DNA of 38,395 bases, taken from the NCBI GenBank assembly GCA_017506175.1, contig JAFVNW010000008.1:1-38395 (forward strand), written 5' to 3'. The notes under the pieces are model-generated. The model was not told the origin of the DNA, ran no database searches, and saw nothing but the letters and a program-made list of their open reading frames with translations. Within the stretch, counting starts at the first letter, position 1. The number at the start of each line of letters is the position of its first letter. This stretch comes from Bacteroidales bacterium. GTDB taxonomy: Bacteria; Bacteroidota; Bacteroidia; Bacteroidales; WCHB1-69. Both the position numbers and the translations under genes were made by a program. Below are positions 1 to 20,944 of this stretch, in pieces.

Positions 1-1085
1 ACTCTTGAAAAAACATCAAATGGATTTCCGTCATATATCGCCAAATCTCCGTCCTTGCCCGTTTTTATACTGCCCAGGCGGTGGTCCACACGGCATATTT
101 TCGCGGCGTCAATGGTTATTGCCCGCAAAGCGTCGTATTCGCTTAACCCTTCCTTTGCCGCCAATGCGGCGCAAAGGGGAAGGTATTGTATACGGGATAC
201 GGGGTGGTCTGTGGTTATTGCCACGGTAACGCCATGCTTGCGCAAAACTCCCGAAGTCTTAAAATCCAACTGGCTTACCTCTTTTTTGTTTCGGGATGCA
301 AGGGAGGGACCCACGATTGCGGGGAAGCCGGATGCGGCTATCTCTTTTGCAATAAGATGTCCTTCGGTGCAGTGGTCCAAGGTTACGGAAATTCCGAATT
401 CCTTTGCTATACGTATTACCGTCAGTATATCGTCCGCACGGTGAACGTGGGCTTTGAGAGGTATTTTGCCTTCAAAAAGCGGGCGGTAGCATTCGTATCT
501 GAAGTCTTTTTCACCGTTTTTTTCCAAATAGTTTTTTGCGTTAAAAAGCTCTTCTCGTATCACGGCGGCGGTTCCCATTCGGGTGGAGGGGGTATTTCCG
601 TTGGAGCCGTAGTTGTTCATAGGGTTTTCTCCCAGCGCCACCTTTATAGCGGCGGGAAACAGAACTATCATTTCATCAATACATCTGCCCGCGGTTTTTA
701 TAAATCCAAACTGACCGCCCACGGGGTTTGCGCTTCCGGGTCCTGCCATTACCCCCGTTATACCTACAGCCAACGCATTGTGAAACGCGCTGTCCATAGG
801 GTTTATTCCGTCAATTCCCCGTATCCACGGGGTAACGGGGGTAGTGCCTTCGTTGCTTTCGTCGTTTAATGCTGTGCTCTTTTCCTCCGCAATGCCCAAA
901 TGGCTGTGGGCATCTATAAATCCCGGGTATATCCGCAGGTTTGTCGCATCCAACACCCGCATATTTTCGTCGGGGGATATATTTTCGCTTATTTTTTCAA
1001 TAATTCCGTTTTTTATAAGCAGGTCCGCTTTTACGGGAAACTTGCTTTCCATAGTATAAATAGTGCCGTTTTTAATTAAAAGCAT
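1..1085 (-). CDS. Amidohydrolase (imidazolonepropionase/dihydroorotase-like superfamily), C-terminus off the window
   Basis: About 361 residues are visible, reading from 1085 to the left edge with no stop, so the C-terminus is missing. The start is fixed by an AAGGAGG ribosome binding site at 1094-1100, 8 nt before the ATG. The chain begins with the small beta-sandwich segment typical of these enzymes (MLLIKNGTIYTMES), followed by the metal-binding DAHSH motif (His60 and His62), a later KAHVHRADD histidine, a LDHCTEGH histidine and a TTDHP aspartate. That is the full metal-ligand set of a metal-dependent hydrolase. The substrate cannot be told from sequence. Related Clostridia proteins are annotated only as amidohydrolases of the COG1228 kind. 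It belongs to the Firmicute part of the window, is a cytosolic enzyme (no signal peptide), and is divergent from the small peptide gene at 1165. Confidence 0.85.
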   Translation of the reverse strand, partial: MLLIKNGTIYTMESKFPVKADLLIKNGIIEKISENISPDENMRVLDATNLRIYPGFIDAHSHLGIAEEKSTALNDESNEGTTPVTPWIRGIDGINPMDSAFHNALAVGITGVMAGPGSANPVGGQFGFIKTAGRCIDEMIVLFPAAIKVALGENPMNNYGSNGNTPSTRMGTAAVIREELFNAKNYLEKNGEKDFRYECYRPLFEGKIPLKAHVHRADDILTVIRIAKEFGISVTLDHCTEGHLIAKEIAASGFPAIVGPSLASRNKKEVSQLDFKTSGVLRKHGVTVAITTDHPVSRIQYLPLCAALAAKEGLSEYDALRAITIDAAKICRVDHRLGSIKTGKDGDLAIYDGNPFDVFSR

Positions 1086-1164
1086 ATGTTTTGCCTCCTT
1101 TACGAATAGTCTTTGCTTAATCAGGTAAAACTATTCCCGAGCATTTATCAAGGGGGTGAAAAAT

Positions 1165-1281
1165 ATGGATTACAACCAGAACAACAAGAGCCAGAACAAC
1201 AAGAACCAGAATAACAACCAGAACAGCGAAAACAATAAGAACCAGAACAACAAGCAGAACAAAGATAACAAAAACAAGTAA
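1165..1281 (+). CDS. Small Asn/Gln/Lys-rich peptide, 38 aa
   Basis: A 38-codon reading frame starts at an ATG placed 6 nt after a strong AGGGGGTG ribosome binding site (1151-1158) and ends in TAA just before an intrinsic terminator (1293-1329). Good initiation signal plus terminator makes a real gene likely despite the size. After MDY the protein is almost entirely N, Q and K, with a few S, E and D, arranged as loose repeats of the form NQNNK. It has no hydrophobic segment, cysteine or recognisable domain. Its composition and size recall small hydrophilic proteins of spore-forming Clostridia, but I cannot assign it to a known family. Function unknown. Confidence 0.6.
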   Translation: MDYNQNNKSQNNKNQNNNQNSENNKNQNNKQNKDNKNK

Positions 1282-1292
1282 GCGCGTTTTAT

Positions 1293-1329
1293 AAAAAATG
1301 CTCCGCAGTTAAAAGCGGAGTATTTTTTT
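1293..1329. terminator. Intrinsic terminator after the small peptide gene
   Basis: The stem CTCCGC / GCGGAG is flanked by an A-run on the left and a T-run on the right, which extend the pairing and make it potentially bidirectional. It lies 12 nt after the stop of the 38-aa gene. Confidence 0.85.
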
Positions 1330-1332
1330 GTC

Positions 1333-1365
1333 GGGGTCCCCGAGAAGCCATAAGGCTTCTTGGGG
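1333..1365. repeat. Overlapping inverted repeats between terminator and uraA promoter
   Basis: CGGGGTCCCCG (1333-1342) is a small palindrome. Its CCCC also starts a second, longer hairpin: CCCCGAGAAGCC (1338-1349), loop ATAA, GGCTTCTTGGGG (1354-1365), twelve pairs with one G-T. The two cannot form together. No T-run follows. It lies upstream of the likely uraA promoter, so it is not obviously part of the uraA leader. Role unknown. Confidence 0.5.
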
Positions 1366-1455
1366 TGATTGTATCTGCCTGAAAAAACAAAAGTTTGGGT
1401 GTTTATGTGCAAAATGCCGTTTTTACTATATTTTGAAGAAATTTGTAATAAATTG

Positions 1456-1485
1456 TTTACAAATGCGTATATGTTGTGGTAGAAT
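1456..1485 (+). promoter_or_regulatory. Putative sigma-70-type promoter for uraA-upp
   Basis: TTTACA (1456-1461), 18-nt spacer, TAGAAT (1480-1485), 60 nt before the uraA start. The match is moderate. No convincing PyrR-binding loop was seen in the short leader. Confidence 0.5.
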
Positions 1486-1545
1486 ATCACCAGCAAATAT
1501 CTTTACAGTCCTGCGTAAAATAAATTCAAAGGAAGAAAAAAGATT

Positions 1546-2949
1546 ATGGAAAACAAACTTGTCTACGGTATTCACGACAAACCGAAATTCGGCAGTATGC
1601 TTATCTTTGCGTTCCAGCAAGTGCTTGCCATTCTCGCCGCCACCATTCTGGTTCCCGCTATTATCGGTAACGGTATGAGCCAGTCCGCCGCCCTCTTCGG
1701 CGCAGGTGTCGGCACAATCGTTTATCAGCTCTTTACCAAGTTCCGCAGCCCCGTATTTCTGGGCTCCTCTTTCGCCTTTATCGGCTCAATGCTTGCCGCT
1801 TTCGGCGGTGCCGCTTCCGCTTCCGCAGGCTATGCGGGTCTTATTGTCGGTGCGGTATTTGCAGGTCTCGTTTACGTGGCTATTGCAATCGTCGTTAAGT
1901 TTGCAGGCGTTGCCTGGATAAACAAGCTTATGCCCACTGTGGTTATCGGCCCCACCGTCGCTCTTATCGGTCTTTCTCTCGCTGTTAATGCGGTAGGCGA
2001 TCTCACCACCGGCAAGGTAATGGTTGAAAAGGTTGAGCAGGTCATTCAGGACGGCGCTATAGTTGAACAAACCACTATGGTTTCCGGCTGCAGTCCTTAC
2101 GTTGCCTTGGTATGCGGTCTTGTTACCTTGTTCTCAATCTTTGCTCTTTCTGTTTACGGCAAAAAGATGGCAAAGCTTATTCCCTTTGTGCTGGGTATCC
2201 TCATTGGTTACGTAGTTGCTTCCGTCTTCACCGTTATCGGTATCGCAACAGATAACGTAGCACTTCAGGTCATCAACTTTGCCGCTTTCAAGGATATGCA
2301 GATCTTTGCAATTCCCGATTTCACGTTTATTGAAGCATTCAAGGGCGTTAAGGATATTGACGGCTCCTTTATCGCTACTATCGCAGTAGCTTACGTTCCC
2401 GTTGCTTTCGTAGTATTTGCAGAACATATAGCAGACCATAAGAACCTTTCCTCTATTATCGGACAAGATCTGCTTGAAAATCCCGGTCTGCACCGCACCT
2501 TGCTGGGTGACGGTGTCGGCTCCATGGCAGGCGCTTTCTTCGGCGGATGCCCCAACACTACTTACGGTGAATCCGTTGGCTGTGTAGCTATTACCCGTAA
2601 CGCATCGGTAGTTACTATTACCACCGCTGCAATTATGAGCATAGTTATCTCCTTCTTCGGCCCCTTCGTTACCTTCCTTTCTTCTATTCCCAACTGTGTA
2701 ATGGGCGGCGTTTGCGTGGCTCTTTACGGCTTTATCGCAGTTTCCGGTCTTAAAATGATCCAGAAGGTAGACCTTAACGAAAGTTCAAACCTCTTTGTGG
2801 TTTCTTCTATCCTCATTCCCGGTATCGGCGGACTCAGCGTTTCCTTCGGCAAGGTAACTATTACCACCATTGCTTGCGCGCTTATTCTCGGTATCGTTAC
2901 CAACATTCTTTTGAATAAGCTGGGCAAAAACAAAAAAACGGAGAAATAA
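1546..2949 (+). CDS. uraA: Uracil permease (nucleobase:cation symporter-2 family)
   Basis: This 467-residue, strongly hydrophobic protein has the usual NCS2 length and about 14 membrane segments. It carries the family signature running from FAEHIADHKNLS through LLGDGVGSMAGAFFGG to NTTYGESVG. The two glutamates in AEH and YGES correspond to the residues that bind uracil in E. coli UraA. It imports uracil across the cytoplasmic membrane by proton symport. The start is preceded by AAAGGAAG at 1528-1535. It is followed after 2 nt by upp, which converts the imported uracil to UMP, so the pair forms a pyrimidine salvage operon. Specificity for uracil rather than xanthine is supported by this neighbour. 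Codon use and ribosome binding sites are Firmicute-like. Confidence 0.93.
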   Translation: MENKLVYGIHDKPKFGSMLIFAFQQVLAILAATILVPAIIGNGMSQSAALFGAGVGTIVYQLFTKFRSPVFLGSSFAFIGSMLAAFGGAASASAGYAGLIVGAVFAGLVYVAIAIVVKFAGVAWINKLMPTVVIGPTVALIGLSLAVNAVGDLTTGKVMVEKVEQVIQDGAIVEQTTMVSGCSPYVALVCGLVTLFSIFALSVYGKKMAKLIPFVLGILIGYVVASVFTVIGIATDNVALQVINFAAFKDMQIFAIPDFTFIEAFKGVKDIDGSFIATIAVAYVPVAFVVFAEHIADHKNLSSIIGQDLLENPGLHRTLLGDGVGSMAGAFFGGCPNTTYGESVGCVAITRNASVVTITTAAIMSIVISFFGPFVTFLSSIPNCVMGGVCVALYGFIAVSGLKMIQKVDLNESSNLFVVSSILIPGIGGLSVSFGKVTITTIACALILGIVTNILLNKLGKNKKTEK

Positions 2950-2951
2950 TA

Positions 2952-3593
2952 ATGAAAAATTATGATAACGTGGTCATTTTCGACCATCCCCTTATAAGAC
3001 ACAAAATAGCCATCCTCCGCGATGAGAAGACCAGTATGAAGGAATTCCGCGAACTGGTTGAGGAAATAACCACCCTTATGACATACGAAAGCCTTAAGGA
3101 CGGCGTTCCCACCACTGAGGTTGAGGTTAAGACCCCTCTGGAAACCTGCACACAGCAGGTAGTAATGGATAATTCCATAGTTATCGTTCCCATCCTCCGC
3201 GCAGGACTGGGTATGGTAAACGGCATACACGTTTTGTTCCCCTCTGCCCGTGTGGGACATATCGGTATGTACCGTAATGAAGAGACTCTTGAGCCTTGCG
3301 AATATTACTGCAAGCTTCCCAAGGATATAGACGATAAGCTGGTACTGCTTGTTGACCCTATGCTGGCAACCGGCGGCAGCGCTTGCGATGCTATCAACCT
3401 GCTCAAAAATCACGGCTGCAAGCACATTAAGTTTATGGCCATTATCGGCGCACCCGAGGGCGTTTCCAAGGTTGCGGAAGCTCATCCGGACGTAAATATT
3501 TACGTTTCCACACTGGACAGATGCCTTAATGAAAACGGATATATTCTTCCCGGCCTGGGCGATGCGGGCGACAGACTCTTCGGAACGAAATAA
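2952..3593 (+). CDS. upp: Uracil phosphoribosyltransferase
   Basis: Catalyses uracil + PRPP to UMP + PPi in pyrimidine salvage. At 213 residues it has the standard length. The PRPP-binding loop [11 protein letters not shown] is present, as is the uracil-binding C-terminus containing [13 protein letters not shown]. The start follows uraA by 2 nt, with GGAG at 2940-2943 inside the uraA end as ribosome binding site, so the genes are co-transcribed and probably translationally coupled. An intrinsic terminator follows directly at 3606-3641. Confidence 0.96.
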
Positions 3594-3605
3594 AATATTC
3601 TTTCA

Positions 3606-3641
3606 AAAACTCCCGTTTTGTTTTACACAAACGGGAGTTTT
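3606..3641 (+). terminator. Intrinsic terminator of uraA-upp
   Basis: Perfect 13-bp arms AAAACTCCCGTTT (3606-3618) and AAACGGGAGTTTT (3629-3641) around a 10-nt loop, starting 12 nt after the upp stop. Confidence 0.9.
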
Positions 3642-3644
3642 GTG

Positions 3645-3673
3645 TTGCTATTGGGTTTTCGGTATGTTATAAT
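3645..3673 (+). promoter_or_regulatory. Sigma-70-type promoter with extended -10
   Basis: TTGCTA (3645-3650), 17-nt spacer, TATAAT (3668-3673) preceded by TG two bases before. This perfect -10 box is typical of Firmicutes and is unlike the TAnnTTTG promoters used to the right of the join. Confidence 0.75.
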
Positions 3674-3703
3674 ATTTTCATAAATAAAAACGGAGGGTTT
3701 ATT

Positions 3704-4054
3704 ATGTTAAAAAAGATTATCATATCTGTACTTATTCTGGCATTATGCTTTGCGTTCGTTTCCTGTGATTCGCAGCCTGCGGATCAAAGCACTCCTTCTA
3801 CCAATGAAAGCACAAAAGAAGAAAGCCAAGCAGAAGAAAATAACAATCAGACAGAGGAAAGTAAAAACGATATTGTTAAGGATACTATTCCTCCCGCTTT
3901 TATTGATGCGAATGACGGTGTTTTGCCCGCTGTTACTCACAACGCAGGTGAGCAGCCCGATTTGATTTCCGGCATTATTGCAAGAGATAATATTACTCCC
4001 GATGAAGAGGTAGTTATTTCTGTTTCCGATGATGGCGGTTATGATGCAAGTGTC
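3704..4054 (+). CDS. Secreted lipoprotein, N-terminal fragment cut at the chimeric join
   Basis: About 117 residues survive. The start follows GGAGGG (3692-3697). A lipoprotein signal peptide with lipobox FVSC puts the acylated cysteine at residue 21. A Ser/Glu/Asn/Gln-rich linker follows (about residues 22-60), then the beginning of a beta-sandwich domain ([16 protein letters not shown] ... DDGGYD) resembling bacterial immunoglobulin-like domains. The frame then runs without a stop into the middle of the cytoplasmic ATPase EttA. A surface lipoprotein fused to half an ABC-F protein is not plausible, so the natural C-terminus is considered lost. Function unknown. The gene belongs to the Firmicute genome. 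Confidence 0.7.
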
Positions 4055-4060
4055 ACCAAC
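4048..4060. other. Junction between Firmicute-like and Bacteroidales-like sequence
   Basis: The lipoprotein reading frame changes to EttA at about 4,052-4,060, where the ABC-F signature PTNHLD should read. The Pro codon is replaced by Val, and Thr-Asn-His-Leu-Asp follows in register. Everything left of it has Shine-Dalgarno sites and sigma-70 promoters. Everything right of it has TAnnTTTG promoters and none of those sites. No transposon end, tRNA or integrase marks the boundary. Confidence 0.85.
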
Positions 4061-5152
4061 CACCTCGACGCCGAGTCAGTGCAATGGCTGGAAATGCACT
4101 TGCACCAATACCAAGGTACCGTCATCGCCGTTACCCACGACCGCTATTTCCTGGACAACGTTGCCGGCTGGATTCTTGAACTCGACCGAGGCGAAGGAAT
4201 CCCGTGGCAAGGCAACTACTCTTCCTGGTTGCAACAAAAAACCAACCGCCTGGCGTTGGAGGAAAAGCAGGAATCCAAACGCATGAAGACGTTGGAACGC
4301 GAATTGGAGTGGGTGCGAATGGCCCCGAAAGCCCGACAAGCCAAATCGAAAGCACGTTTGAACGCTTACGACAGATTGTTGAACGAAGACATCAAGGAGA
4401 AGGAAGAAAAACTCCAGATTTTCATTCCAAACGGACCGCGACTTGGTACGAAGGTCATTGAAGCACAACATGTTGCAAAAGCATACGGCGACAAGTTGCT
4501 GTTTGATGACCTCAACTTCACTCTGCCGCCCAATGGCATAGTCGGAGTCATCGGGCCGAACGGTGCCGGCAAGACCACGCTCTTCCGACTGATTATGGGT
4601 TTGGAAAAGCCCGACAGCGGCACTTTTGAAGTGGGTGAAACCGTGAAAATCGGATATGTTGACCAACAACATGCTGATATCGACCCCGAAAAGACCGTTT
4701 GGGAAGTGATTTCAGAGGGGAACGAGCAGATGATGTTGGGTGGCCGGCTCATCAACTCCCGCGCCTACGTCTCCCGTTTCAATTTCAGCGGCACCGACCA
4801 AGGGAAGAAGGCCGGCGTGTTGTCGGGCGGTGAACGCAACCGTATGCACCTCGCACTCACCTTGAAATCGGAGGCCAATGTGCTGCTTCTGGACGAACCA
4901 ACCAACGACATCGACGTGAACACGCTGCGCGCATTAGAAGAGGGTTTGGAAGATTTCGCTGGTTGCGCGGTGGTCATCTCGCACGACCGTTGGTTCCTCG
5001 ACCGCATCTGCACGCATATCCTCGCTTTCGAGGGCGACTCGCAGGTCTATTTCTTCGAAGGAAGCTATTCGGAGTACGAGGAAAACAAGAAAAAACGCCT
5101 CGGCAACGACGAGCCAACGCGGATTCGATACAAGAAATTGATGAAAGACTAA
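4055..5152 (+). CDS. ettA: Energy-dependent translational throttle protein EttA (ABC-F), 5'-truncated
   Basis: The 365 residues present correspond to EttA from the Walker B/D-loop region of its first ATPase domain ([13 protein letters not shown]) to the C-terminus. The first roughly 190 residues are missing at the join. Visible are the H-loop of domain 1 ([14 protein letters not shown]), the EttA hallmark [19 protein letters not shown], the interdomain linker with basic helices ([19 protein letters not shown]), and a complete second ATPase domain with Walker [10 protein letters not shown], signature LSGGERNR, Walker [10 protein letters not shown] and H-loop ISHDRWF. EttA binds the ribosomal E site and gates entry into elongation according to the ATP/ADP ratio. 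The family match is very close throughout. The gene is intact in its own genome as far as can be judged from the 3' part. Confidence 0.93.
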
Positions 5153-5212
5153 AACCCACACGGATAATAGAAAAGAAGAAGAGAATGGCGCAATAATTAG
5201 AAGAGTTTTGCG

Positions 5213-5220
5213 TACATTTG
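5213..5220 (+). promoter_or_regulatory. Bacteroidetes-type promoter (-7 TACATTTG)
   Basis: An exact match to the TAnnTTTG consensus of the primary sigma factor in this phylum, 23 nt before the likely ATG at 5244. It also argues against using the upstream TTG at 5208 as start. Confidence 0.65.
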
Positions 5221-5243
5221 CAGCCAATTTTCAAAATGAAGCA

Positions 5244-6032
5244 ATGAAGAAGATCTTGTTTGCCTCCATCCTGTTCATTATCGGGTTTCTGTTTCCGGCC
5301 AAAGCGCAGGAAAAAGCCGATATTGAATTGAAATACAACGCGATGGATACAGCGACTAACATGGTTTGGGCGAATGCGAACTTTGCGTGGCAATTTCCCT
5401 TCGGTACTTTGAAGGAGACTTTCAAATCCAACCTCAACATCGGAGTCGATCTTACCTATAAAACAGCCGGAAACTGGACTTTCAGCGTGGATTTCAACTA
5501 CTTGTTCGGCTCAAAAGTTCGTGACCAAAAGGCCATTCTGGGGCCGGACATGCTAACTTCCAATGGGGACTTGATTGACGGAAACGGTCAGAAAGCGACC
5601 ATCTATTTTGAAGGACGCTACTGGAATCTCAGCGGCGGATTCGGTAAAATCATCGATTTCGGCAAATGGCGCAACTCCGGCCTCTGGATCAAATTGAATT
5701 TCGGCTATTTTGAGCACAAAGTCCGCATCAACGACCCCGACAACCAGATTCCACAACTTTCAGGCGATTACAAGAAAGGATATGACCAACGCGCAGGCGG
5801 GTTCTGCATGTCACAATTTTTCGGCTACGTTTTTATGAGAAAAGTCCGCGTAGCAAGCTTTTTCGCCGGCATTGAAGTGTCTGAAATATGGACCAAAAGC
5901 AACCGAAACTACAATTTTCTCTTGATGGGAAAAGACGAAAGCAAAAAATTCAGCGTGCTAATCGGTCCCAAAATCGGCTGGATTATTCCTCTCTACGAAA
6001 AACGAAAAATCCAAACGCTTTACCATTACTAA
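5244..6032 (+). CDS. Outer-membrane beta-barrel-like protein with signal peptide
   Basis: 262 residues from the ATG at 5244. This start places a clean signal peptide (MKKILFASILFIIGFLFPAKAQ) at the N-terminus and sits just behind a TAnnTTTG promoter. The mature part alternates short beta-strand-like stretches with many aromatic residues and turns (NMVWANANFAWQFPFG, WTFSVDFNYLFGSK, YWNLSGGFGK, FFGYVFMRK), as in small outer-membrane barrels. No precise family is recognised. It is followed after 2 nt by waaA, so an envelope role linked to LPS is possible, but this is inference from position only. Confidence 0.7.
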   Translation: MKKILFASILFIIGFLFPAKAQEKADIELKYNAMDTATNMVWANANFAWQFPFGTLKETFKSNLNIGVDLTYKTAGNWTFSVDFNYLFGSKVRDQKAILGPDMLTSNGDLIDGNGQKATIYFEGRYWNLSGGFGKIIDFGKWRNSGLWIKLNFGYFEHKVRINDPDNQIPQLSGDYKKGYDQRAGGFCMSQFFGYVFMRKVRVASFFAGIEVSEIWTKSNRNYNFLLMGKDESKKFSVLIGPKIGWIIPLYEKRKIQTLYHY

Positions 6033-6034
6033 TT

Positions 6035-7270
6035 ATGCAAGTTCTATATAACATCTTTATCTACCTCTATTCCGCCGCGATTTCCGTGGCGGCATTGTTT
6101 TATAACAAAGCCAAATTATTGCATAGTGGTAGAAGGAAAATCTTTAACAATCTTGCGCAACAGTGTGATAACAAGCAGATTGTGTGGTTCCACTGTGCTT
6201 CTTTAGGTGAATACGAACAGGGTAAACCGCTCATCCAAAAATTTAGGGAGCAATACCCCGACCTGACCTTTTTGGTCACTTTCTTCTCGCCTTCCGGCTA
6301 TGAAGTGAAAAAAAACGACAAAGACATAGACATCCTCGCATACCTACCCTCGGATACGCCAAAGAATGCGAGGAAATTCATCCAGACTGTCAAGCCGAAA
6401 GCCGTCTTTTTCGTCAAGTATGAATATTGGTACAATTTTATAAACGAATTGTATATCAATAAAATACCCTTCTACTATCTTTCTGCAATTTTCCGTTCCA
6501 AGCAATATTTCTTCCAACCTTACGGAAGATGGTTCGCCGAACAACTGAAAAAATGCACCTACTTCTTCGTTCAAAACAAACTCTCACAGATTTTGCTGAA
6601 TCAGATTGACATAGAGCAAGTTGCTGTCACCGGCGACACACGCTTCGATCGCGTTTATCACATCGCGCAAAAAAATACTGAACTGGACTTCATGCGCGAA
6701 TTCAAACAGGACACAAAACTCATCATCGCAGGCAGCAGCTGGCAGCCGGACGAGGAACTTTTGAATAAAGTATTTGAAACTGCCAAAAATGACTACAAAA
6801 TCGTACTCGCTCCTCATCTAATTGATCCAGAGCATATTACATCAATCAAACAACTTTTTGGTAAAGAGAAAGTGGTTTGTTACACCCAAATAGAAGGCAA
6901 AAATTTGGCAGAGTACAACGTACTTATCATAGATACAATCGGCATTTTGAGAAAAATTTACAAGTATGCCGACATTGCCTACATAGGGGGGGCGTTTGGA
7001 ACCGGACTTCACAACACGCTGGAAGCCGCAGTGTTCGGAATCCCGTTGTTTTTCGGACCAGAGTATGACCATTTCAACGAAGCGGTGGAACTGGTCACCC
7101 GTAAAGGAGCATTCTCTATTGTTACGAGTGAAGAGATGATTATCAAACTGCGCGGCTTCAAAGCCAATCCAGATTATTACAAACAGACCTGCCAAATTTG
7201 TGCACAGTACGTACACGAAAATTTGGGCGCATGCGACAAAATCGCCGAATACATCCATTTGGAAAATTAA
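6035..7270 (+). CDS. waaA: 3-deoxy-D-manno-octulosonic acid (Kdo) transferase
   Basis: 411 residues from the ATG at 6035, a normal length for the family. A longer frame extends upstream, but this ATG begins with the membrane-anchoring helix expected of WaaA (YNIFIYLYSAAISVAALFY), and the upstream gene stops 2 nt earlier. The N-terminal domain contains WFHCASLGEYEQGKPL with the catalytic glutamate of the family. The C-terminal GT-B nucleotide-sugar domain has IAGSSWQPDEE and the Kdo-transferase motif YIGGAFGTGLHNTLEAAVFGIP. The enzyme transfers Kdo from CMP-Kdo to lipid A precursor on the inner face of the cytoplasmic membrane. It is probably co-transcribed with the barrel protein before it and priA after it (28-nt gap). 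Confidence 0.95.
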   Translation: MQVLYNIFIYLYSAAISVAALFYNKAKLLHSGRRKIFNNLAQQCDNKQIVWFHCASLGEYEQGKPLIQKFREQYPDLTFLVTFFSPSGYEVKKNDKDIDILAYLPSDTPKNARKFIQTVKPKAVFFVKYEYWYNFINELYINKIPFYYLSAIFRSKQYFFQPYGRWFAEQLKKCTYFFVQNKLSQILLNQIDIEQVAVTGDTRFDRVYHIAQKNTELDFMREFKQDTKLIIAGSSWQPDEELLNKVFETAKNDYKIVLAPHLIDPEHITSIKQLFGKEKVVCYTQIEGKNLAEYNVLIIDTIGILRKIYKYADIAYIGGAFGTGLHNTLEAAVFGIPLFFGPEYDHFNEAVELVTRKGAFSIVTSEEMIIKLRGFKANPDYYKQTCQICAQYVHENLGACDKIAEYIHLEN

Positions 7271-7298
7271 CACAGCTATTTGTTTATCAATTAGTTAA

Positions 7299-9809
7299 AT
7301 GGAACGAATCACCTATTTCGCTGACATTCTCCTTCCCTTACCCCTCAAAGGCACTTTTACCTATCGCGTGCCACAAAGCATGGAAGGTAATTTAGCTTTT
7401 GGCATGCGCGTTGTCGTTCCATTCGGGAAAAACCGACTCTATTCCGGAATTGTCATCCAAGTGCACACCCATGTGCCGCAAAACATCAATATCAAGTACA
7501 TTACGGATATTGTTGACCATGTTCCCATTATTTCCGAACGGCAATTCCAACTCTGGCAATGGATGTCGCAGTACTACATGTGCACTTTAGGTGAAGTGAT
7601 GTCGTGCGCGCTCCCATCCGCACTCAAGCTGGCGGGGGAAACCAAAGTGCAAATCCATCCCGACTTTGATGGCGACATCTCAACATTGAACGAGATTGAA
7701 CTGAAAATCACGGAAACCGTCCTGCATCACAAAAGCATCGCCATTGGAGAACTTGCCAAAATATTGCAGATTCCGAAGATCATTCCCTTCATAAAATCTT
7801 TGGTTGAAAAGCAGGTCGTCGTTTCAGAAGAGGAAATCCGCGACATCTACAAACCTAAAAAAGAGGTTTACCTCTCCCTGGCCGAACCTTACGCACACAA
7901 CCAAACCGAACTTTTCGCCCTGCTTGATTCTTTGGAAAAGTCAAAAAGAACCCAAAAACAATCGGAAACTCTGCTTGCTTTTCTGATGATTCTGCGAAAA
8001 GATGGCATAGTAAAAGATTATTCCACCGCCATAAAGAAAAGCGAACTTGCAAATAATGAACGAGTTTCAAGTTCTTCCCTGCAACGATTGATTGAAAAAA
8101 ATATTCTGGTTGAAAAAACAGTTGTCATCAGCCGGCTGATGGATGTCGATGCCCAATCCGACACCTCTGAAATTCAACTTTCAAAGGCGCAAGAAAATGC
8201 CTTTCAATCTATCAAGCAGCAATTCAAGAACATGCAAACTGTCTTGCTGCATGGTGTTACAGGTAGCGGCAAAACAGAGATTTACATCAAACTCATCGAT
8301 GAGGTGCTGAAAGAGGGGAAACAAGTTCTATACCTGCTTCCCGAAATAGCACTTACTTCTCAGATTGTCAATAGATTACGCAAATATTTCGGAGACAAGG
8401 TCGGGGTTTATCACTCGCGTTTCAGCGAATATGAAAAAGTGGAAATTTGGAATCGTGTGCTGAACCATGGGATCACCCAGGATGACGCGAACAAATACCA
8501 ACTGATTCTGGGCGCCCGTTCCGCACTGCTTCTTCCTTTTAACAATCTGGGACTCATTGTTGTGGATGAAGAGCACGACGGCTCCTACAAGCAGATGGAC
8601 CCAGCACCCCGCTACAACGCCCGAGACTCTGCCTTGATATTATCAAGTCTGCACCACGCAAAAGTCCTGCTTGGAAGTGCAACTCCTTCATTAGAAACAT
8701 TTTACAATGTCCGCCAAAAGAAATACGGCTACGTTCCATTACTAAAACGGTATGCACAAAGCAAGCTACCGGATATCTGGACCGTTAATATGAAAGAGTG
8801 CCAACGCCAAAAAAAGGTAACAGGCATGTTTTCGGAATTTTTGTTGGAAAAAATCGGAGCGGCACTGGCCAAAAAGGAACAGGTGATTCTCTTCCAGAAT
8901 CGCAGGGGTTTCTCTTTGCGGCTTTTCTGCAATTCATGCGAGACTTCCCCAACTTGCAAGTATTGCGACGTCACACTGACCTATCACAAGCGAGTGAACC
9001 TGCTGAAATGCCACTATTGTGGCTATGCCATTGAAGTTCCCCACGAATGCCCCAAATGCCATAGCGCTGACATTGAAATGGTTGGCTTCGGAACGGAGAA
9101 GATAGAAGATACCTTGGCGGAAATTTTCCCAGATGCCGTCATCCAGCGGATGGATTTGGACACCACGCGCTCAAAAAACGCTTACCAGAAAATCATCACC
9201 GACTTTGAACAACACAAAACCGACATTCTTGTTGGCACTCAAATGGTTACAAAGGGGTTGGATTTTGACCGCGTCTCCGTGGTGGGCGTGCTCAGCGCCG
9301 ACAACATGCTCAATTTTCCGGACTTCAGAGCTTTTGAACGAGCCTATCAGATTATCTCGCAGGTCAGCGGTCGCGCGGGAAGAAAAGAGGTCCCCGGTTC
9401 CGTTGTCATTCAAACCTACCAACCCGAACATCCCGCTTTGAAATTCGTTGTCAACAACGACTTCAACAAGATGTACCAAATGCAAATTGCGGAACGGAAG
9501 CAATTTATGTATCCCCCCTTTTGTCGTCTTATCAAACTGACTTTAAGACATAAAGACGAAGATTTTCTCAATGAATCATGTCAAATTTTAGCACAGACAT
9601 TGAGAACAGCCTTCCCGAAAATGGTTTTGGGCCCTGAATTTCCATTGGTCGCACGCATTCAACTTTACTATATGAAGGATTTTTGGATAAAATTCCCGAA
9701 AGACGACACACTCTCCGCAAAGAAGCGCAAACTGGAAGAGATACTGGCTGATTTTAGGACGAACACAAAGTACAAATCAGTGGGAGTGGTGATTAATGTG
9801 GACGCATAA
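7299..9809 (+). CDS. priA: Primosomal replication protein N' (helicase PriA)
   Basis: 836 residues. The N-terminal 3'-DNA-binding domain starts with RITYFADILLPLPLKGTFTY. The helicase core has Walker A GVTGSGKTEIY near residue 320 and the DEEH box (VVDEEHDGSYKQ) near 422, followed by GSATPSLET. The family-specific zinc-binding insertion has eight cysteines between about residues 545 and 590 (for example CNSC, CKYC, CHYCG, CPKC). The C-terminal helicase motifs LVGTQMVTKGLDFDRV and QVSGRAGR are intact. PriA recognises stalled replication forks and D-loops and reloads the replicative helicase. It is the last gene of the run that starts at 5244. Confidence 0.97.
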   Translation: MERITYFADILLPLPLKGTFTYRVPQSMEGNLAFGMRVVVPFGKNRLYSGIVIQVHTHVPQNINIKYITDIVDHVPIISERQFQLWQWMSQYYMCTLGEVMSCALPSALKLAGETKVQIHPDFDGDISTLNEIELKITETVLHHKSIAIGELAKILQIPKIIPFIKSLVEKQVVVSEEEIRDIYKPKKEVYLSLAEPYAHNQTELFALLDSLEKSKRTQKQSETLLAFLMILRKDGIVKDYSTAIKKSELANNERVSSSSLQRLIEKNILVEKTVVISRLMDVDAQSDTSEIQLSKAQENAFQSIKQQFKNMQTVLLHGVTGSGKTEIYIKLIDEVLKEGKQVLYLLPEIALTSQIVNRLRKYFGDKVGVYHSRFSEYEKVEIWNRVLNHGITQDDANKYQLILGARSALLLPFNNLGLIVVDEEHDGSYKQMDPAPRYNARDSALILSSLHHAKVLLGSATPSLETFYNVRQKKYGYVPLLKRYAQSKLPDIWTVNMKECQRQKKVTGMFSEFLLEKIGAALAKKEQVILFQNRRGFSLRLFCNSCETSPTCKYCDVTLTYHKRVNLLKCHYCGYAIEVPHECPKCHSADIEMVGFGTEKIEDTLAEIFPDAVIQRMDLDTTRSKNAYQKIITDFEQHKTDILVGTQMVTKGLDFDRVSVVGVLSADNMLNFPDFRAFERAYQIISQVSGRAGRKEVPGSVVIQTYQPEHPALKFVVNNDFNKMYQMQIAERKQFMYPPFCRLIKLTLRHKDEDFLNESCQILAQTLRTAFPKMVLGPEFPLVARIQLYYMKDFWIKFPKDDTLSAKKRKLEEILADFRTNTKYKSVGVVINVDA

Positions 9810-9852
9810 GGATTTTTATAAGAATCCTTTCGCCTTTCTCCTAAAAAAATCG

Positions 9853-9860
9853 TACTTTTG
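9853..9860 (+). promoter_or_regulatory. Bacteroidetes-type promoter (-7 TACTTTTG)
   Basis: Exact TAnnTTTG match 21 nt before the transketolase-subunit ATG at 9882. The upstream CTG/TTG codons in the same frame overlap this promoter and are unlikely starts. Confidence 0.65.
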
Positions 9861-9881
9861 CGGCTCAAAATCAGATTTATT

Positions 9882-10832
9882 ATGCAAAAAATCACTTGTA
9901 ACGATTTAAAGGACACCCGTTCCGGCTTTGGCGCGGGCTTATTGGAAGCAGGACGCAGAAATCCCAACGTTTTCGCACTATGCGCCGATGTAATTGGGAG
10001 CTTGAAAATGGGCGATTTCATCAAGGAATTCCCCGATCGTTTCGTACAAACAGGCATTGCGGAAGCCAACATGGTTGGCATTTCCGCCGGCTTGGCTTTG
10101 AGCGGGAAAATCCCATTTGCGGGCGCATTCGCCGGCTTCATTTCCGGGCGCGTGTATGACCAAATCCGCATGACCGTCGCCTATTCCAACCTCAACGTGA
10201 AAATCGCCGCCTCCCATGCTGGCATCACCGTCGGCGAAGACGGTGCCACCCACCAGATGATGGAAGACCTCGGACTGATGAAGATGCTGCCTAACATGGT
10301 GGTTATCAATCCGTGCGACTACAACCAGACCAAAATGGCCACGCTGGCCGCCGCCGAATACGTAGGTCCCGTTTACCTCCGCTTCGGCCGCCCCGCCGTG
10401 CCCAACTTCACCCCCGCCGACCAGCCCTTTGAAATCGGAAAAGCCATCGTGATGAACGAAGGCAAGGACGTTTCCATCTTCGCCACCGGCCACCTCGTAT
10501 GGCCCGCCCTGGAAGCCGCCTACGAACTCGACCAAAAGGGAATCAGCGCGGAAGTGATTGATATAGCCACAATTAAACCGTTGGATGAAGAAGCTGTGCT
10601 GAAGAGTGTTGCCAAGACCAAACACGTGGTGACCGCCGAGGAACACTTTATGAACGGCGGAATGGGCGACAGCATCTGCCAACTTTTGGCACGGAAACTC
10701 CCAGCTCCCGTGGAAATGGTGGCCGTTGACGACCACTTCGGCGAAAGCGGAAAACCCGATGAACTGATGCGCAAGTTCGGTCTCGACACCCCGCACATCA
10801 TCGAAGCTGCAATGAAAGCAATCGCCAGATAA
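9882..10832 (+). CDS. Transketolase, C-terminal subunit
   Basis: 316 residues equal the second half of transketolase: the pyrimidine-binding domain (FALCADVIGSLKM ... VQTGIAEANMVGISAGLAL, with the Glu that activates thiamine diphosphate in GIAEANM) and the C-terminal transketolase domain (DVSIFATGHLVWPALEAA, VIDIATIKPLDEEAV, TAEEH). The thiamine-diphosphate/Mg-binding N-terminal half is not next to it: the gene upstream is priA and the one downstream a sigma factor. Split transketolases of this kind are known, and an active enzyme would need the partner encoded elsewhere. It acts in the non-oxidative pentose phosphate pathway, moving two-carbon units between sugar phosphates. Deoxyxylulose-5-phosphate synthase is less likely because the protein is shorter and lacks an N-terminal half. 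Confidence 0.9.
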   Translation: MQKITCNDLKDTRSGFGAGLLEAGRRNPNVFALCADVIGSLKMGDFIKEFPDRFVQTGIAEANMVGISAGLALSGKIPFAGAFAGFISGRVYDQIRMTVAYSNLNVKIAASHAGITVGEDGATHQMMEDLGLMKMLPNMVVINPCDYNQTKMATLAAAEYVGPVYLRFGRPAVPNFTPADQPFEIGKAIVMNEGKDVSIFATGHLVWPALEAAYELDQKGISAEVIDIATIKPLDEEAVLKSVAKTKHVVTAEEHFMNGGMGDSICQLLARKLPAPVEMVAVDDHFGESGKPDELMRKFGLDTPHIIEAAMKAIAR

Positions 10833-10871
10833 ACAAATACCCATAGCTCCTACCTCAAAAAAAATGTCGAT

Positions 10872-11423
10872 ATGGCCGACGATGCGGAGATCTTGGCACT
10901 TTTTCAGGACGAGAAAACCAAAGAAAAAGCATTCACCTTACTGATGCAAAAGTACCAGCAGGATATTTATTATGCCATCCGCAGATACGTTTATGGCCAC
11001 GAAGACGCGAACGACATCACCCAGAATGTGTTCATCAAAGTGTGGCGCTACTTGGACAAATTTCGCGGAGATTCTTCTCTAAAAACTTGGATTACAAGAA
11101 TTTGCATCAACGAATCATTGACTTTTATCGATAAAAAGAAAAAAACGCTCAATCTCTCCGACGACCAATACACCGACCATCTACTGAATGTAGCTGCCGA
11201 AGAAAAATACTTCTCCTCCGACCGTATCGAAGCCCTGCTCCAAAAAGCCATCATCAAGCTACCTGATAAACAACGACTTGTATTCTCACTCCGTTACTAC
11301 GATGAAATGCCCTACGAAGAGATGTCCAAAGCTCTCGGCACCTCCGTCGGCGCACTCAAATCCTCCTACCACTTCGCCCGCGAAAAAGTCGAAGCCATTT
11401 TGAAAGAAGCCGTCAAAGTGTAA
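10872..11423 (+). CDS. RNA polymerase sigma factor, ECF family
   Basis: 183 residues. Region 2 is recognisable at about residues 20-90 (LMQKYQQDIYYAIRRYVYGHEDANDITQNVFIKVWRYLDKF) and region 4 at about 125-180 (LPDKQRLVFSLRYYDEMPYEEMSKALGTSVGALKSSYHFAREK), the helix-turn-helix that reads the -35 element. No anti-sigma gene follows; the next gene is hutU, 90 nt on. A protein of the type normally encoded directly behind such sigma genes is found alone at 29119-29667. The gene starts 39 nt after the transketolase subunit, without an obvious promoter of its own. Target genes unknown. Confidence 0.9.
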   Translation: MADDAEILALFQDEKTKEKAFTLLMQKYQQDIYYAIRRYVYGHEDANDITQNVFIKVWRYLDKFRGDSSLKTWITRICINESLTFIDKKKKTLNLSDDQYTDHLLNVAAEEKYFSSDRIEALLQKAIIKLPDKQRLVFSLRYYDEMPYEEMSKALGTSVGALKSSYHFAREKVEAILKEAVKV

Positions 11424-11513
11424 TCTCCTACCTCCTAATTGAACTTCACCGCTCAGCAATACGCACATAACCAGAGTTAACCACGAAAAAACAAACAAAT
11501 CAATAATAAAATT

Positions 11514-13514
11514 ATGACTTTACAAGAATTCCAACAGGATCTTATGCAAGGCATTCCTTCCAAATTGCCCGCACTGAAACCTTACGACACCACCATCAAC
11601 CACGCCCCGAAGCGCAAGGATATTCTGACTCCCGCAGAGAAGAAGCTGGCCCTGCGCAATGCACTCCGCTACTTCGATCCCTCCCTCCACGCCGCCCTCG
11701 CACCGGAATTTATGGAGGAACTGCACAAATACGGCCGTATCTACATGTACCGCTACCGTCCCGACTACGAGATGTACGCCCGTCCCATCGACCAGTATCC
11801 CGCCAAGTGCCGGCAGGCCGCAGCCATCATGCTGATGATCCAGAACAACTTGGATCCCGCCGTGGCCCAGCACCCGCACGAACTGATCACCTATGGCGGC
11901 AACGGAGCCGTCTTCCAGAACTGGGCCCAATATCGCCTCGTGATGAAGTACTTGTCGGAAATGACTGACGAGCAGACCCTCGTGATGTACTCCGGTCATC
12001 CGTTGGGATTGTTCCCATCACACAAGGAGGCTCCGCGTGTGGTCGTCACCAACGGCATGATGATCCCCAACTACAGCAAGCCCGACGACTGGGAGCGCTA
12101 CAATCCCCTTGGTGTGACGCAGTATGGTCAGATGACTGCCGGCAGTTATATGTATATCGGCCCGCAAGGAATCGTACATGGTACTACCATCACGGTGCTG
12201 AACGCCGCCCGCAAGCTCGGCGGCGGCACCGCCGGCAAGCTGTTCGTAACTGCAGGCCTCGGTGGTATGAGCGGCGCCCAGCCCAAAGCCGGTGACATCG
12301 CCGGAGTAGTCTCCATCACCGCCGAAATCAACCCCAGCGCTACCCAGAAACGCTACACCCAAGGTTGGGTGGACGAAGTTCACGAAAACCTCGATGAGCT
12401 GTTCGCCGCTGTGAACGAAGCACGCGCAAAAAAAATCGCCCGCTCCTTTGCCTATCAGGGCAACATCGTTGATTTGTGGGAATACTGCGCCGACAACAAC
12501 ATCCAAGTTGATCTCGGTTCCGACCAGACTTCCCTTCACAACCCGTGGGCAGGTGGTTACTATCCTGTGGGCATCTCCTTCGAGGATGCCAAGGTGATGA
12601 TGGCGGAAGAACCCGAAAAGTTCAAAGCCGCCGTGCAGGAGAGCTTGCGCCGCCATGTGGCCGCCATCAACAAGCTGACCGCCAAGGGAATGTACTTCTT
12701 CGATTACGGCAACGCCTTCCTGTTGGAAAGCAGCCGTGCCGGTGCCGACATCTGGAACGCCGACAAGACCGCCTTCCGCTATCCCTCTTATGTTCAGGAT
12801 ATTATGGGACCGATGTGCTTCGACTACGGTTTCGGCCCGTTCCGTTGGGTATGCACCAGCGGCAAGCCCGAAGACCTCGACAAGAGCGACCATATCGCGA
12901 TGGAGGTGTTGGCGGAAATCGCCGCTACGGCTCCTGCCGAAATCCAACAGCAGATGCACGACAACATCCAGTGGATCAAGGGGGCCAAGGAGAACCACTT
13001 GGTGGTGGGCAGCCAGGCCCGTATCCTCTATGCCGACTGCGAAGGACGTACCAAGATTGCCGCCCGTTTCAACGAGGCCATCCGCAAGGGCGAGATCAGC
13101 GCACCCATCGTGCTCGGCCGCGACCACCACGATGTGAGCGGCACCGACAGCCCGTTCCGTGAAACCAGCAACATCTACGACGGCAGCAACCGTTGTGCCG
13201 ATATGGCGGTGCAGAACGTCATCGGCGACAGCTTCCGGGGTGCCACGTGGGTGAGCATCCACAACGGCGGCGGTGTCGGCTGGGGCGAAGTGGTGAACGG
13301 CGGTTTCGGCATGGTGCTGGACGGCAGTGCCGAGTGCGACCGCCGACTCAGGATGATGCTGCACTGGGATGTCAACAATGGCATTTCGCGCCGCAGCTGG
13401 GCCCGCAACGAGGGCGCCATGTTCGCCATCAAACGCGCCATGGCCGCCTGTCCGGAACTGAAAGTCACCCTTCCCAACCTCGTGGACGACAGCATCATAG
13501 AGAGCGTAAAATAG
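11514..13514 (+). CDS. hutU: Urocanate hydratase (urocanase)
   Basis: 666 residues of the longer urocanase type common in Bacteroidetes. It converts urocanate to imidazolonepropionate, the second step of histidine degradation, using tightly bound NAD+ as electrophile. Visible features are ITYGGNGAVFQNW near the N-terminus, the long HPLGLFPSHKEAPRVVVTNGM segment, the glycine-rich NAD site TAGLGGMSGAQPKAG, and the conserved DLGSDQTSLHNPWAGGYYPVG and MCFDYGFGPFRWVCTSG blocks. It is notably rich in C and G at third positions compared with the genes around it, as expected for a highly expressed gene. No other hut gene is in the window. A terminator follows at 13536. Confidence 0.96.
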   Translation: MTLQEFQQDLMQGIPSKLPALKPYDTTINHAPKRKDILTPAEKKLALRNALRYFDPSLHAALAPEFMEELHKYGRIYMYRYRPDYEMYARPIDQYPAKCRQAAAIMLMIQNNLDPAVAQHPHELITYGGNGAVFQNWAQYRLVMKYLSEMTDEQTLVMYSGHPLGLFPSHKEAPRVVVTNGMMIPNYSKPDDWERYNPLGVTQYGQMTAGSYMYIGPQGIVHGTTITVLNAARKLGGGTAGKLFVTAGLGGMSGAQPKAGDIAGVVSITAEINPSATQKRYTQGWVDEVHENLDELFAAVNEARAKKIARSFAYQGNIVDLWEYCADNNIQVDLGSDQTSLHNPWAGGYYPVGISFEDAKVMMAEEPEKFKAAVQESLRRHVAAINKLTAKGMYFFDYGNAFLLESSRAGADIWNADKTAFRYPSYVQDIMGPMCFDYGFGPFRWVCTSGKPEDLDKSDHIAMEVLAEIAATAPAEIQQQMHDNIQWIKGAKENHLVVGSQARILYADCEGRTKIAARFNEAIRKGEISAPIVLGRDHHDVSGTDSPFRETSNIYDGSNRCADMAVQNVIGDSFRGATWVSIHNGGGVGWGEVVNGGFGMVLDGSAECDRRLRMMLHWDVNNGISRRSWARNEGAMFAIKRAMAACPELKVTLPNLVDDSIIESVK

Positions 13515-13535
13515 TCACGACCTACAAGTTAGATA

Positions 13536-13571
13536 CAACCTCCGCCAGCTGGAAAGTTGGCGGAGGTTTTT
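13536..13571 (+). terminator. Intrinsic terminator after hutU
   Basis: AACCTCCGCCA (13536-13546) pairs with TGGCGGAGGTT (13557-13567), followed by a T-run, 22 nt after the hutU stop. Confidence 0.9.
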
Positions 13572-13618
13572 GTTGTATAATTTCATGTAGCAGATACCGG
13601 TACATAGCAGAATTATCG

Positions 13619-13626
13619 TACTTTTG
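13619..13626 (+). promoter_or_regulatory. Bacteroidetes-type promoter (-7 TACTTTTG)
   Basis: Exact TAnnTTTG match 22 nt upstream of the ATG at 13648. Confidence 0.65.
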
Positions 13627-13647
13627 CCATCCCTTAATTCCTCCATG

Positions 13648-15673
13648 CTTATGAATAGGTTTTTCCCTATCGTTTTTCTAATCATGATGATGCTTGATGG
13701 TGTGTTTGCCCAAGTACCTCATTCCAAAGAAGCCCGCGACTATCGCGCCACTCTTGATATCAGAGGAAGGATTACGGAACTTTCCGTCTCACCAGATGGG
13801 CACATCTGGCTATCTACCGCAACGGGGAATTTGTACTATGCAAATGATATCGACGCCGACTGGCATTCTAGCGAAACAGACACCCGGAAGAATAAGGAGG
13901 ATGACGCCCTAAGGCTTAACAGTCCGAATTTTGACAGAGTCTCTTTTTTCAATGCGGACACTGCCATTCTGACGGGTTATATTGCGTATGATCCAACAAG
14001 TTACCACCTCAAGAGCGGTTACTATCGTACCACAGACGGAGGGCGCACGTGGAAACTGCTCAATTTGGGGAAAGATGGGTGGATTTACACTGTCGCAGTA
14101 AATCAATGCGGGCACGCTTGGTTAGGCACGGGGGATAAGACCATCCTCTATTCCAATGACTTCGGTCTGCATTTCAAGACTTTAAAGATACCGCATTTAC
14201 GCTCCGACAGAATCTATGCCATTCACATGACAGATTCTCTTTCCGGTATCATTGGGTCGGACGATAATGAAATTCTTATCACGAATAATAATTGGAAAAC
14301 GGCTAAAAATATTCCCGCCCCGTTCACTCAGAAAAAAAATGTCGAAACCGAAACATGGCTTTGTTGATCTCCGAGTTGACAAGGTCCTCGTTTGGGGTGA
14401 CTATCTGCTTGCGCGGCAGCAGAATCGGGTGTTTTATACCCATAAAGACAAGATAGAATGGCAAAGTTTTCCCGTACGGCTTTTGGATTTTGCGCTTGAT
14501 GAAGATCATAATCTGCTGATGGGTTATGATGACAGCCTCAGATTGCTGGTCTTCTCTTCGCCAACACAATACCAGTTGCTCACGGAAGAGAGAATACCCA
14601 CCTATCCTGTTGACATCAAGATGGTTAATGGGACGGTGTATATGTATCTCATTGATTGTCGCTTGTGCAAGGCGAATCATGACGGCCTGAAATGCTGCAC
14701 ACCACTCACTAGCGACTATCCCATCAAGGAGCCCAGATTGGTACAGAAAGGCAAGAAATTGCAGTGGGGTGCAGAGGGCACACATCTTTATATTGCAGAA
14801 AAAAGGCATCACTGGTATCGCGAGGCGGAATTGGATTTCCCGATAGCGAACCTGCACCTTCTGGGTGATTCGGTGGCCATCCTTTGGGACACCAAACAGA
14901 ACCACCGTTATTCGCTGCTTTCCCACTCTGCGGAACCTTATTCCTTGAAGAATCCCTTAAGTGATTTTCTTGCCACCCCTATCAGGTCAATGACCATTAC
15001 CTCGGGCAGCAACGGCTGTTTTCACTCCTTTTCGCAAAGCATAACATTCACTGTCAGTACAGATTCCCTCCTTACGGCATCTTTAATACAACAAAATAAT
15101 GGATACAAAGGTGAGAAGGATTCTGCAATAGAGCTTTCTGTGAGTCTGCCACAGCTGGTCCGGATTTTGGAAAGTATCAATGAAAACCCTGATAAGATTC
15201 CTGAAATTAAGGATTTTGACATTACCGAAGCAGATGCGCAGCGTTATCGGAAAATGTTGGCTGACCAGCGGAAATCCAAGGATTTCAGTTTTGATATGGT
15301 TGTTCTTGATGACGGAGGGTTCTATGACTCGATTCCCCGCCTACTGCAGTCGGTTGAGAGGGAGGAAATGTATCAGGCCCTTACAATGGGAGAAGGGATT
15401 ACAAGTACGACAAGCTACTGGTTCAACATCACATTTGTGAACGACAACAAAGAAACGTGTACGATGAGCAGTTCATACTATCTCACAGGAAATCCGTGGT
15501 TCCTTCCGTGGCTGGTATCTTGCGATGACCTGTATTTCAATTGTTTCAATATTGAATTGTCGCGTTTCTTAGCAGAGTGTCTGCCCAAAGACTTCTCAGG
15601 GCGTAAAGCCTTCGACAATGCCATCCTGATCAAAAAAATTGGGGACTATTATTGGCGGAAGAAGCATAATTGA
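13648..15673 (+). pseudogene. Secreted beta-propeller-like protein, frameshifted in an A8 run
   Basis: Two reading frames make one protein of about 674 residues. The first part (13648 to about 14340) has a signal peptide (MLMNRFFPIVFLIMMMLDGVFAQ) and repeats like those of BNR/YCF48 propellers (ISELSVSPDG-type strands, GYYRTTDGGRTWKLLNLGKDGW, ILYSNDFGLHFKTL, ILITNNNWKTAKNIP). It runs out of frame 27 nt after eight A's at 14332-14339. The second part continues in the +1 frame to 15673 with VDKVLVWGDYLLARQQNRVFY and more propeller-like strands, then an alpha/beta C-terminal domain. Removing one A restores a continuous protein. An ATG at 14339 could start the second part alone, but it would lack a signal peptide. 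Sequencing/assembly error, a real mutation and slippage are all possible. No family is recognised for the C-terminal domain. Confidence 0.75.
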
Positions 15674-15682
15674 TAGAGATTT

Positions 15683-16606: not shown

Positions 16607-16635
16607 ATATTTGAAGGATGCATATTTTAAGGTTG

Positions 16636-16643
16636 CAAAGATA
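16636..16643 (-). promoter_or_regulatory. Bacteroidetes-type promoter (-7 TATCTTTG, minus strand)
   Basis: Exact TAnnTTTG match 30 nt upstream of the lipoprotein start at 16606. Confidence 0.65.
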
Positions 16644-16760
16644 AAAAAATTGAATGTATTTTGCTTGACTCGTCTGCCATACCTTTATTATATAAAATCT
16701 AAAAAAGTATTAAAAACATTACTTTTTGTAATTTATACTTGCTTTTTGTAAAGTTTTGTG

Positions 16761-16768
16761 TATTTTTG
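16761..16768 (+). promoter_or_regulatory. Bacteroidetes-type promoter (-7 TATTTTTG)
   Basis: Exact TAnnTTTG match 79 nt before the small XRE regulator. The long A/T-rich leader in between holds no other clear signal. Confidence 0.55.
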
Positions 16769-16847
16769 CAGCGTCAAAAACAAAATTTCCAACCCTTAAA
16801 AATATCTTTTTACCTTCGTTTATATTTGAATAAACGTTCTTTGCGCA

Positions 16848-17051
16848 ATGAAAAACAGGATTAAAGTGGCACGTGCCGAGGTGAACATCACCCAAGGCGA
16901 ATTAGCCGAAAAAATCGGCGTGACCCGCCAGGCAGTCAATTCCATAGAATTAGGGAAATACGTTCCCAGCACCTTGCTGGCGCTGAAGATGGCGCACTAC
17001 TTCGGCAAGACGGTGGAGGAGCTTTTCATGCTGGAGGAGGGGGATCTCTGA
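16848..17051 (+). CDS. Small XRE-family helix-turn-helix regulator
   Basis: 67 residues that are almost entirely one Cro/CI-type DNA-binding domain: RIKVARAEVNITQGELAEKIGVTRQAVNSIELGKYVPSTLLALKMAHYFGKTVEELF. The recognition helix is around VTRQAVNSIE. This short form (YozG/PF01381-like) often precedes an integral membrane protein gene, but here the next gene (glmM) is convergent, so it stands alone. Probably a DNA-binding repressor; its targets cannot be inferred. Confidence 0.9.
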   Translation: MKNRIKVARAEVNITQGELAEKIGVTRQAVNSIELGKYVPSTLLALKMAHYFGKTVEELFMLEEGDL

Positions 17052-17107
17052 TTATCCCCCACTCCTTCTTTAGGGAACATGGCTTATTCCGAGTATCTTC
17101 CAGGCTG

Positions 17108-18493: not shown

Positions 18494-18526
18494 TATATTC
18501 GTTTTTAGTCTATGTTAAAATTAAAG

Positions 18527-19138: not shown

Positions 19139-19186
19139 GATTTTGTTCCTACTTTCTGTCTATCCTATCTCCTGATTTCTACCTCA

Positions 19187-20203: not shown

Positions 20204-20204
20204 G

Positions 20205-20933: not shown

Positions 20934-20944
20934 TGTATGAGTGA

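What the first reader, a model, noticed from the sequence alone, without database searches (positions are those of the whole stretch)
4048..4060. In-frame join of a Firmicute lipoprotein to the middle of Bacteroidales ettA: probable assembly chimera
The sequence shows an intact signal peptide, linker and Ig-like start switching within a few bases to EttA at TNHLDAE, with about 190 N-terminal residues of EttA lost. Promoter type, ribosome binding sites and codon style change at the same point. A lipid-anchored surface protein fused to a cytoplasmic ATPase has no sensible function. Genuine transfer would have to cut both genes at once and leave no mobile element. If the join is accepted as real, genes 1-4054 would be wrongly assigned to the Bacteroidales genome.
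Basis: partly seen in the sequence, partly recalled or inferred. Interest (0 to 1): 0.75.

Follow-up and report, generated by a model that had tools for sequence, protein, structure and literature searches.

The report
Chimeric contig splits a housekeeping gene
The odd fusion gene is almost certainly not real: about 4 kb of another bacterium's DNA was wrongly joined to this contig, and the missing front half of the gene lies at the end of another contig of the same genome.

Summary
The window is a whole contig (C63, 38,395 bp) of a 99-contig draft genome. Bases 1-4053 and 4054-38395 differ in homology, tetranucleotide signature, codon use and ribosome-binding style, with the break at 4053/4054. 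In the 99 ettA loci compared, no homology starts before 4054. The decisive result: the EttA N-terminal part missing from the window, with the gene that precedes it in a near relative, lies at the very end of another contig of the same genome (C66, 95,226 bases). The last 8 bases of C66 equal window 4054-4061. Reading C66 into the window gives a full-length frame whose protein matches the near relative's EttA at 556 of 559 residues, with 92-97% nucleotide identity in every 150-base block. So the chromosome very probably holds an ordinary ettA split over two contigs, and the first 4,053 bases are foreign, Bacillota-like DNA misjoined in the library or by the assembler. The junction is in 1 of 13 genomes of the genus, this one. 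Donor and stage of the error are not identified; no reads were available. Interest is low; the use is bin clean-up.

The parts
1..4053 (.). Foreign block (Bacillota-like), misjoined to the Bacteroidales contig
   Evidence: No match in G011 nor, in G011, G001 or G005; tetranucleotide distance 0.338 to the rest of the window against a mean of 0.145 (sd 0.071, one of 16 at 0.396) for right-hand segments
3..1085 (-). Amidohydrolase, cut by the contig start
   Evidence: Pfam PF07969 and PF01979 over their cut-offs
1546..2949 (+). NCS2 family uracil permease (uraA-like)
   Evidence: PF00860 over cut-off; TIGR00801 257.1 bits, under its cut-off of 291.8
2952..3593 (+). Uracil phosphoribosyltransferase (upp), a second one of another type than the copy on contig C96
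   Evidence: TIGR01091 282.9 bits; C96 copy 170.6 bits, under the cut-off
3704..4053 (+). 5' part of a lipoprotein-like gene (signal peptide, cysteine after FVS, polar linker), cut by the false join
   Evidence: Translation; the lipobox-like motif is read by eye; no Pfam match over cut-off
4053..4054 (.). The join
   Evidence: Homology start in the 99 loci; tetranucleotide contrast peak; missing ettA part ends contig C66 here
4054..4061 (+). CACCAACC, the 8 bases shared with the end of contig C66
   Evidence: Exact suffix match
4054..5152 (+). 3' part of ettA (codon 195 to stop in the bridged gene)
   Evidence: NCBIfam EttA models; 99% identical to G011; bridged gene 556/559
4054..38395 (.). 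Genuine Bacteroidales part of the contig
   Evidence: Collinear with G011:C90 over 4054-11983 at 95%, with further same-genus matches to the right end

Best explanation
The contig is an inter-genome chimera. A 4,053-base fragment of a Bacillota-like genome was joined, by a chimeric library molecule or by the assembler, to a Bacteroidales contig inside ettA. The Bacteroidales chromosome most likely runs from the end of contig C66 straight into window position 4062 and has an intact, ordinary ettA. Shown: the break at 4054, the missing part at the end of C66, and the full-length gene when C66 is read into the window. Inferred: that the join is absent from any cell, which step made it, and the donor's phylum.
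For: Homology to the 99 compared loci starts at 4054 or later. The nearest relative held is collinear from 4054 on and lacks 1-4053. The 5' part of ettA and the preceding gene match G000:C66:93709-95217 of 95,226 at 91%; the last 8 bases of C66 equal 4054-4061. Bridged protein 556 of 559 and DNA 1,588 of 1,680 identical to G011, every 150-base block at 92-97%. Composition, codon and ribosome-binding change at the join. The junction is in 1 of 13 genomes of the genus, G000 itself. The genome is a 99-contig draft with 2.9% contamination. Low- to intermediate-coverage species were more often built into chimeric contigs by all assemblers tested in PMC7881036 (abstract and passages seen).
Against: No reads were seen. 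The 8-base overlap of C66 and C63 is shorter than the k-mer overlap I would expect at a simple branch of an assembly graph, and is unexplained. The donor was not found, so the donor side of the break is not shown. Composition alone is not proof: one right-hand segment (24054-28106) is as atypical as the foreign block.
Confidence: 0.96

Rival explanations
1. A real insertion of more than 4 kb of foreign DNA into ettA, with CACCAACC as an 8-bp target-site duplication; C66 and C63 are the two sides of the insertion.
For: The 8 shared bases at C66 end and window 4054-4061 fit a target duplication, and no k-mer-length overlap is seen.
Against: The base before 4054 lies inside an open reading frame, not at a recognisable element end; no mobility gene was seen among the ORFs and family matches of 1-4053; C66 stops exactly there without a foreign base; the foreign block occurs once in G000, so a repeat does not explain why C66 stops.
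Confidence: 0.02
2. A real gene fusion or transfer made a functional lipoprotein-EttA hybrid in this strain, the ettA 5' part on C66 being a leftover or a second site.
For: The frame is open through the join.
Against: The junction is in no other genome of the 13 of the genus held; 27 of the 28 relatives with an EttA match have it in an open frame of 559 aa or more, the 28th lying near a contig start; the C66 remnant ends a contig at the very base where the window part begins. An open frame through a random join is not rare.
Confidence: 0.01
3. Strain mixture: some cells carry the intact ettA and others a rearranged one, and the assembler kept one path of each.
For: Would explain why C66 ends at a branch.
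Against: The 3' part of ettA is in G000 once; the other matches of this protein in G000 are at 47% identity or less. A branch should leave an overlap longer than 8 bases.
Confidence: 0.01

Closest known systems
Chimeric (inter-genome misassembled) contigs of metagenome assemblies
   Same: DNA of two unrelated genomes meets within a gene without a mobile element, in a fragmented draft genome; the true neighbour ends another contig of the same bin.
   Different: The overlap left between the true neighbours is only 8 bases; coverage evidence is lacking here.
EttA, energy-dependent translational throttle protein (ABC-F family; TIGR03719, NF008775)
   Same: The C66 plus window gene is a full-length EttA of 559 aa, 556/559 identical to the near relative's.
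   Different: The window ORF alone lacks 194 N-terminal residues, with the first ATP-binding cassette's Walker A, and bears a foreign signal peptide.

Membership tests
Chimeric (misassembled) contig | The two sides have different phylogenetic origin, changing at one point | tested here: met
   Homology starts at 4054 or later in 99 of 99 loci; composition break at 4000-4100. The phylum of the left side is only inferred.
Chimeric (misassembled) contig | The true continuation of a side is found elsewhere in the same assembly | tested here: met
   ettA 5' part at the end of G000:C66. Tested for the Bacteroidales side only.
Chimeric (misassembled) contig | The junction is absent from relatives | tested here: met
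   1 of 13 genomes of the genus, G000 itself
Chimeric (misassembled) contig | Coverage step or no spanning reads at the join | not testable with these tools
   No reads held
Mobile-element insertion in ettA | Element end and mobility gene at the join | tested here: not met
   Join lies inside an ORF; ORFs and family matches of 1-4053 show amidohydrolase, permease, Upp and a lipoprotein part, no mobility gene. Only 4,053 bases could be examined.
Mobile-element insertion in ettA | Target-site duplication with foreign DNA beyond both copies | tested here: inconclusive
   8 identical bases on both contigs, but C66 ends there and shows no foreign base
EttA | Two ATP-binding cassettes, full profile coverage | tested here: not met
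   Window ORF covers profile from 189-191 on only; the bridged C66 plus window gene is full length by comparison with G011

The most novel reading that the evidence does not exclude
A real large insertion of Bacillota DNA into ettA of a Bacteroidales cell, with an 8-bp target duplication, that makes a lipoprotein-EttA fusion.
Probability: 0.02. Interest if true: 0.5.

Novelty: not a real feature. Interest (0 to 1): 0.06.

Why it matters
If left in place, the bin carries 4,053 bases of what looks like another phylum (amidohydrolase, uracil permease, upp, lipoprotein part) and a false fusion gene, and looks as if it lacked an intact ettA. Contig C63 should be cut at 4053/4054, and C66 and C63 probably adjoin. 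It also shows a test that needs no reads: look for the missing half of a fused gene at the other contig ends of the same bin.

Tried and rejected
Donor search. Plasmids: 11 records match 1-4053, the best upp of Subdoligranulum variabile at 69.6% over 410 bases. Phages: 7 records match 1-5150; 4 of these match ettA only and 3 match uraA-upp or upp, the best a human faecal 'Bacteriophage sp.' record at 69.3% over 2348-3593. Viral contigs: no relative of the lipoprotein part or of Upp. A Bacillota-wide genome search was not possible: I had no genome handle in that phylum, and the one genome-contig scan had gone to EttA. The donor is not identified.

Rfam over the window found one family, a tRNA at 38002-38074, so no leader RNA helps to place the donor. 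The promoter scan gave 19 sites against 11.0 (sd 3.3) in shuffles and was used only as a side note. G+C content was looked at and does not discriminate.

Real fusion, real insertion and strain mixture were considered and judged unlikely, for the reasons under the rivals. One literature search was made, on chimeric contigs (3 papers hold the terms, 2 listed); of PMC7881036 I saw the listing and 12 passages.

Full report
Observation. The window is the whole of contig C63 (38,395 bp) of genome G000, a draft of 2,459,636 bases in 99 contigs, 91.09% complete and 2.9% contaminated. ORF 3704-5152 codes for 482 aa. Its first 116 residues or so are a signal peptide with a lipobox-like FVSC (read by eye) and a polar linker. 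From residue 118 on it matches EttA (TIGR03719, NF008775), starting at profile position 189 or 191. The described join is really in the sequence, at 4053/4054.

Where the break is. In the 99 loci with ettA relatives fetched (L009-L107), the longest blastn match to window 1-7000 starts at 4055 in 63, at 4054 in 33, at 4085 in 2 and at 4097 in 1; no match of any kind starts before 4054. The 99 are not all independent: at least two contigs appear, by their lengths, in both lists (L013/L098, L014/L101). The nearest relative held, G011, is collinear with 4054-11983 at 95% and has no match to 1-4053; G001 and G005 have none there either. A composition scan (adjacent 1.5-kb blocks, tetranucleotides, 1500-12000) peaks at 4000-4100. 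The left block is 0.338 from the rest of the window, while 16 overlapping right-hand segments average 0.145 (sd 0.071) from the rest of the right part. One of them, 24054-28106, over a repeat-rich large protein, scores 0.396, so composition alone would not prove foreign origin. The tail of C66 (L119) is 0.080 from the right part and 0.408 from the left. Shine-Dalgarno-like sites stand before 4 of 4 left starts (that of uraA, GGAAG, is weak) and before none of 7 right starts; an eighth, mutS2, was printed at a wrong coordinate and dropped.

The missing part. A 1,498-base query from G011, the 5' part of ettA and the gene before it, matches G000:C66:93709-95217 at 91% over its whole length; the only other match in G000 is 37 bases of a paralogue. 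C66 is 95,226 bases long. Its last 8 bases, CACCAACC, equal window 4054-4061. C66 codes for MADDKK...DEPTN (196 residues) and the window continues with HLDAESV. Read through, C66 plus window 4062-5152 gives 1,680 bases with one stop, at the end. The protein matches G011's EttA at 556 of 559 residues and the DNA at 1,588 of 1,680 positions, 92-97% per 150-base block, with no step where the two contigs meet after base 589. That is what an intact gene split over two contigs looks like.

Relatives. Of 40 relatives searched, 28 have an EttA match (72-99% identity); 27 of these lie in open frames of 559 aa or more and one (G029, 462 aa) begins 297 bases from a contig start. The other 12 gave only more distant ABC-F or ABC matches, some from incomplete genomes. 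The junction pattern, with up to 3 mismatches, is in 1 of the 13 genomes of the genus held, G000 itself. In the order, 38 of 393 genomes have any match to 1100-4053, G000 included; the other 37 matches are short or near 65% identical over at most about 416 bases, mostly upp or the Asn/Lys-rich stretch, and only two candidates were scored per genome.

The foreign block. It holds a truncated amidohydrolase, an NCS2-family uracil permease, upp and the lipoprotein part. Its Upp scores 282-283 bits with TIGR01091, whereas G000's other copy on C96 scores 170.6, under the cut-off; of 25 genomes only two pass the cut-off, G000 by the window's copy and G030 of another family of the order. So this is a second upp of another type, but the type is not wholly foreign to the order. 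The closest solved structure is 1i5e_A, which I recall as a Bacillus enzyme. The best plasmid DNA match is Subdoligranulum variabile, 69.6% over 410 bases. 'Bacillota-like' is reasonable; the donor is not identified.

How it arose. Most likely a chimeric library molecule or a false path in the assembly joined the two genomes. [quoted passage not shown] One detail stays unexplained: an overlap of 8 bases is shorter than the k-mer overlap I would expect at a simple branch. It would also fit an 8-bp target duplication, but C66 shows no foreign base beyond it, the left side ends inside an open reading frame, and no mobility gene was seen in the 4,053 bases.

Verdict. Raw reads were not available, hence 0.96 and not certainty.

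Noticed in passing
window 38196-38395: The right end of the contig lies in a dispersed repeat: of 19 matches in G000 (the window itself included), three are to the first bases of contigs C37 (96%), C91 (100%) and C43 (100%), so several contigs break in this repeat. Copies of about 140 bases are also in G005.
   Followed up: partly
window 1165-1281 (+): Short ORF in the foreign block, 38 residues almost only Asn, Gln and Lys (MDYNQNNKSQNNKNQNN...), behind an AGGGGG stretch; read by eye. Similar low-complexity stretches gave short matches in the order.
   Followed up: no
window 28271-28949 (-): Two overlapping small genes that look like a HEPN (HepT-like) and MNT nucleotidyltransferase pair; recognised by eye from the translations, no family search made.
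   Followed up: no
window 23857-27282 (-): A 1,141-aa secreted-looking protein with repeats; its DNA segment 24054-28106 is as atypical in tetranucleotides (0.396) as the foreign block, yet parts of it match same-genus genomes.
   Followed up: partly
G000:C96:74603-75223: The genome's other upp-like gene scores 170.6 bits with TIGR01091, under the cut-off, as do most relatives' copies; a second Upp type seems usual in this family.
   Followed up: no
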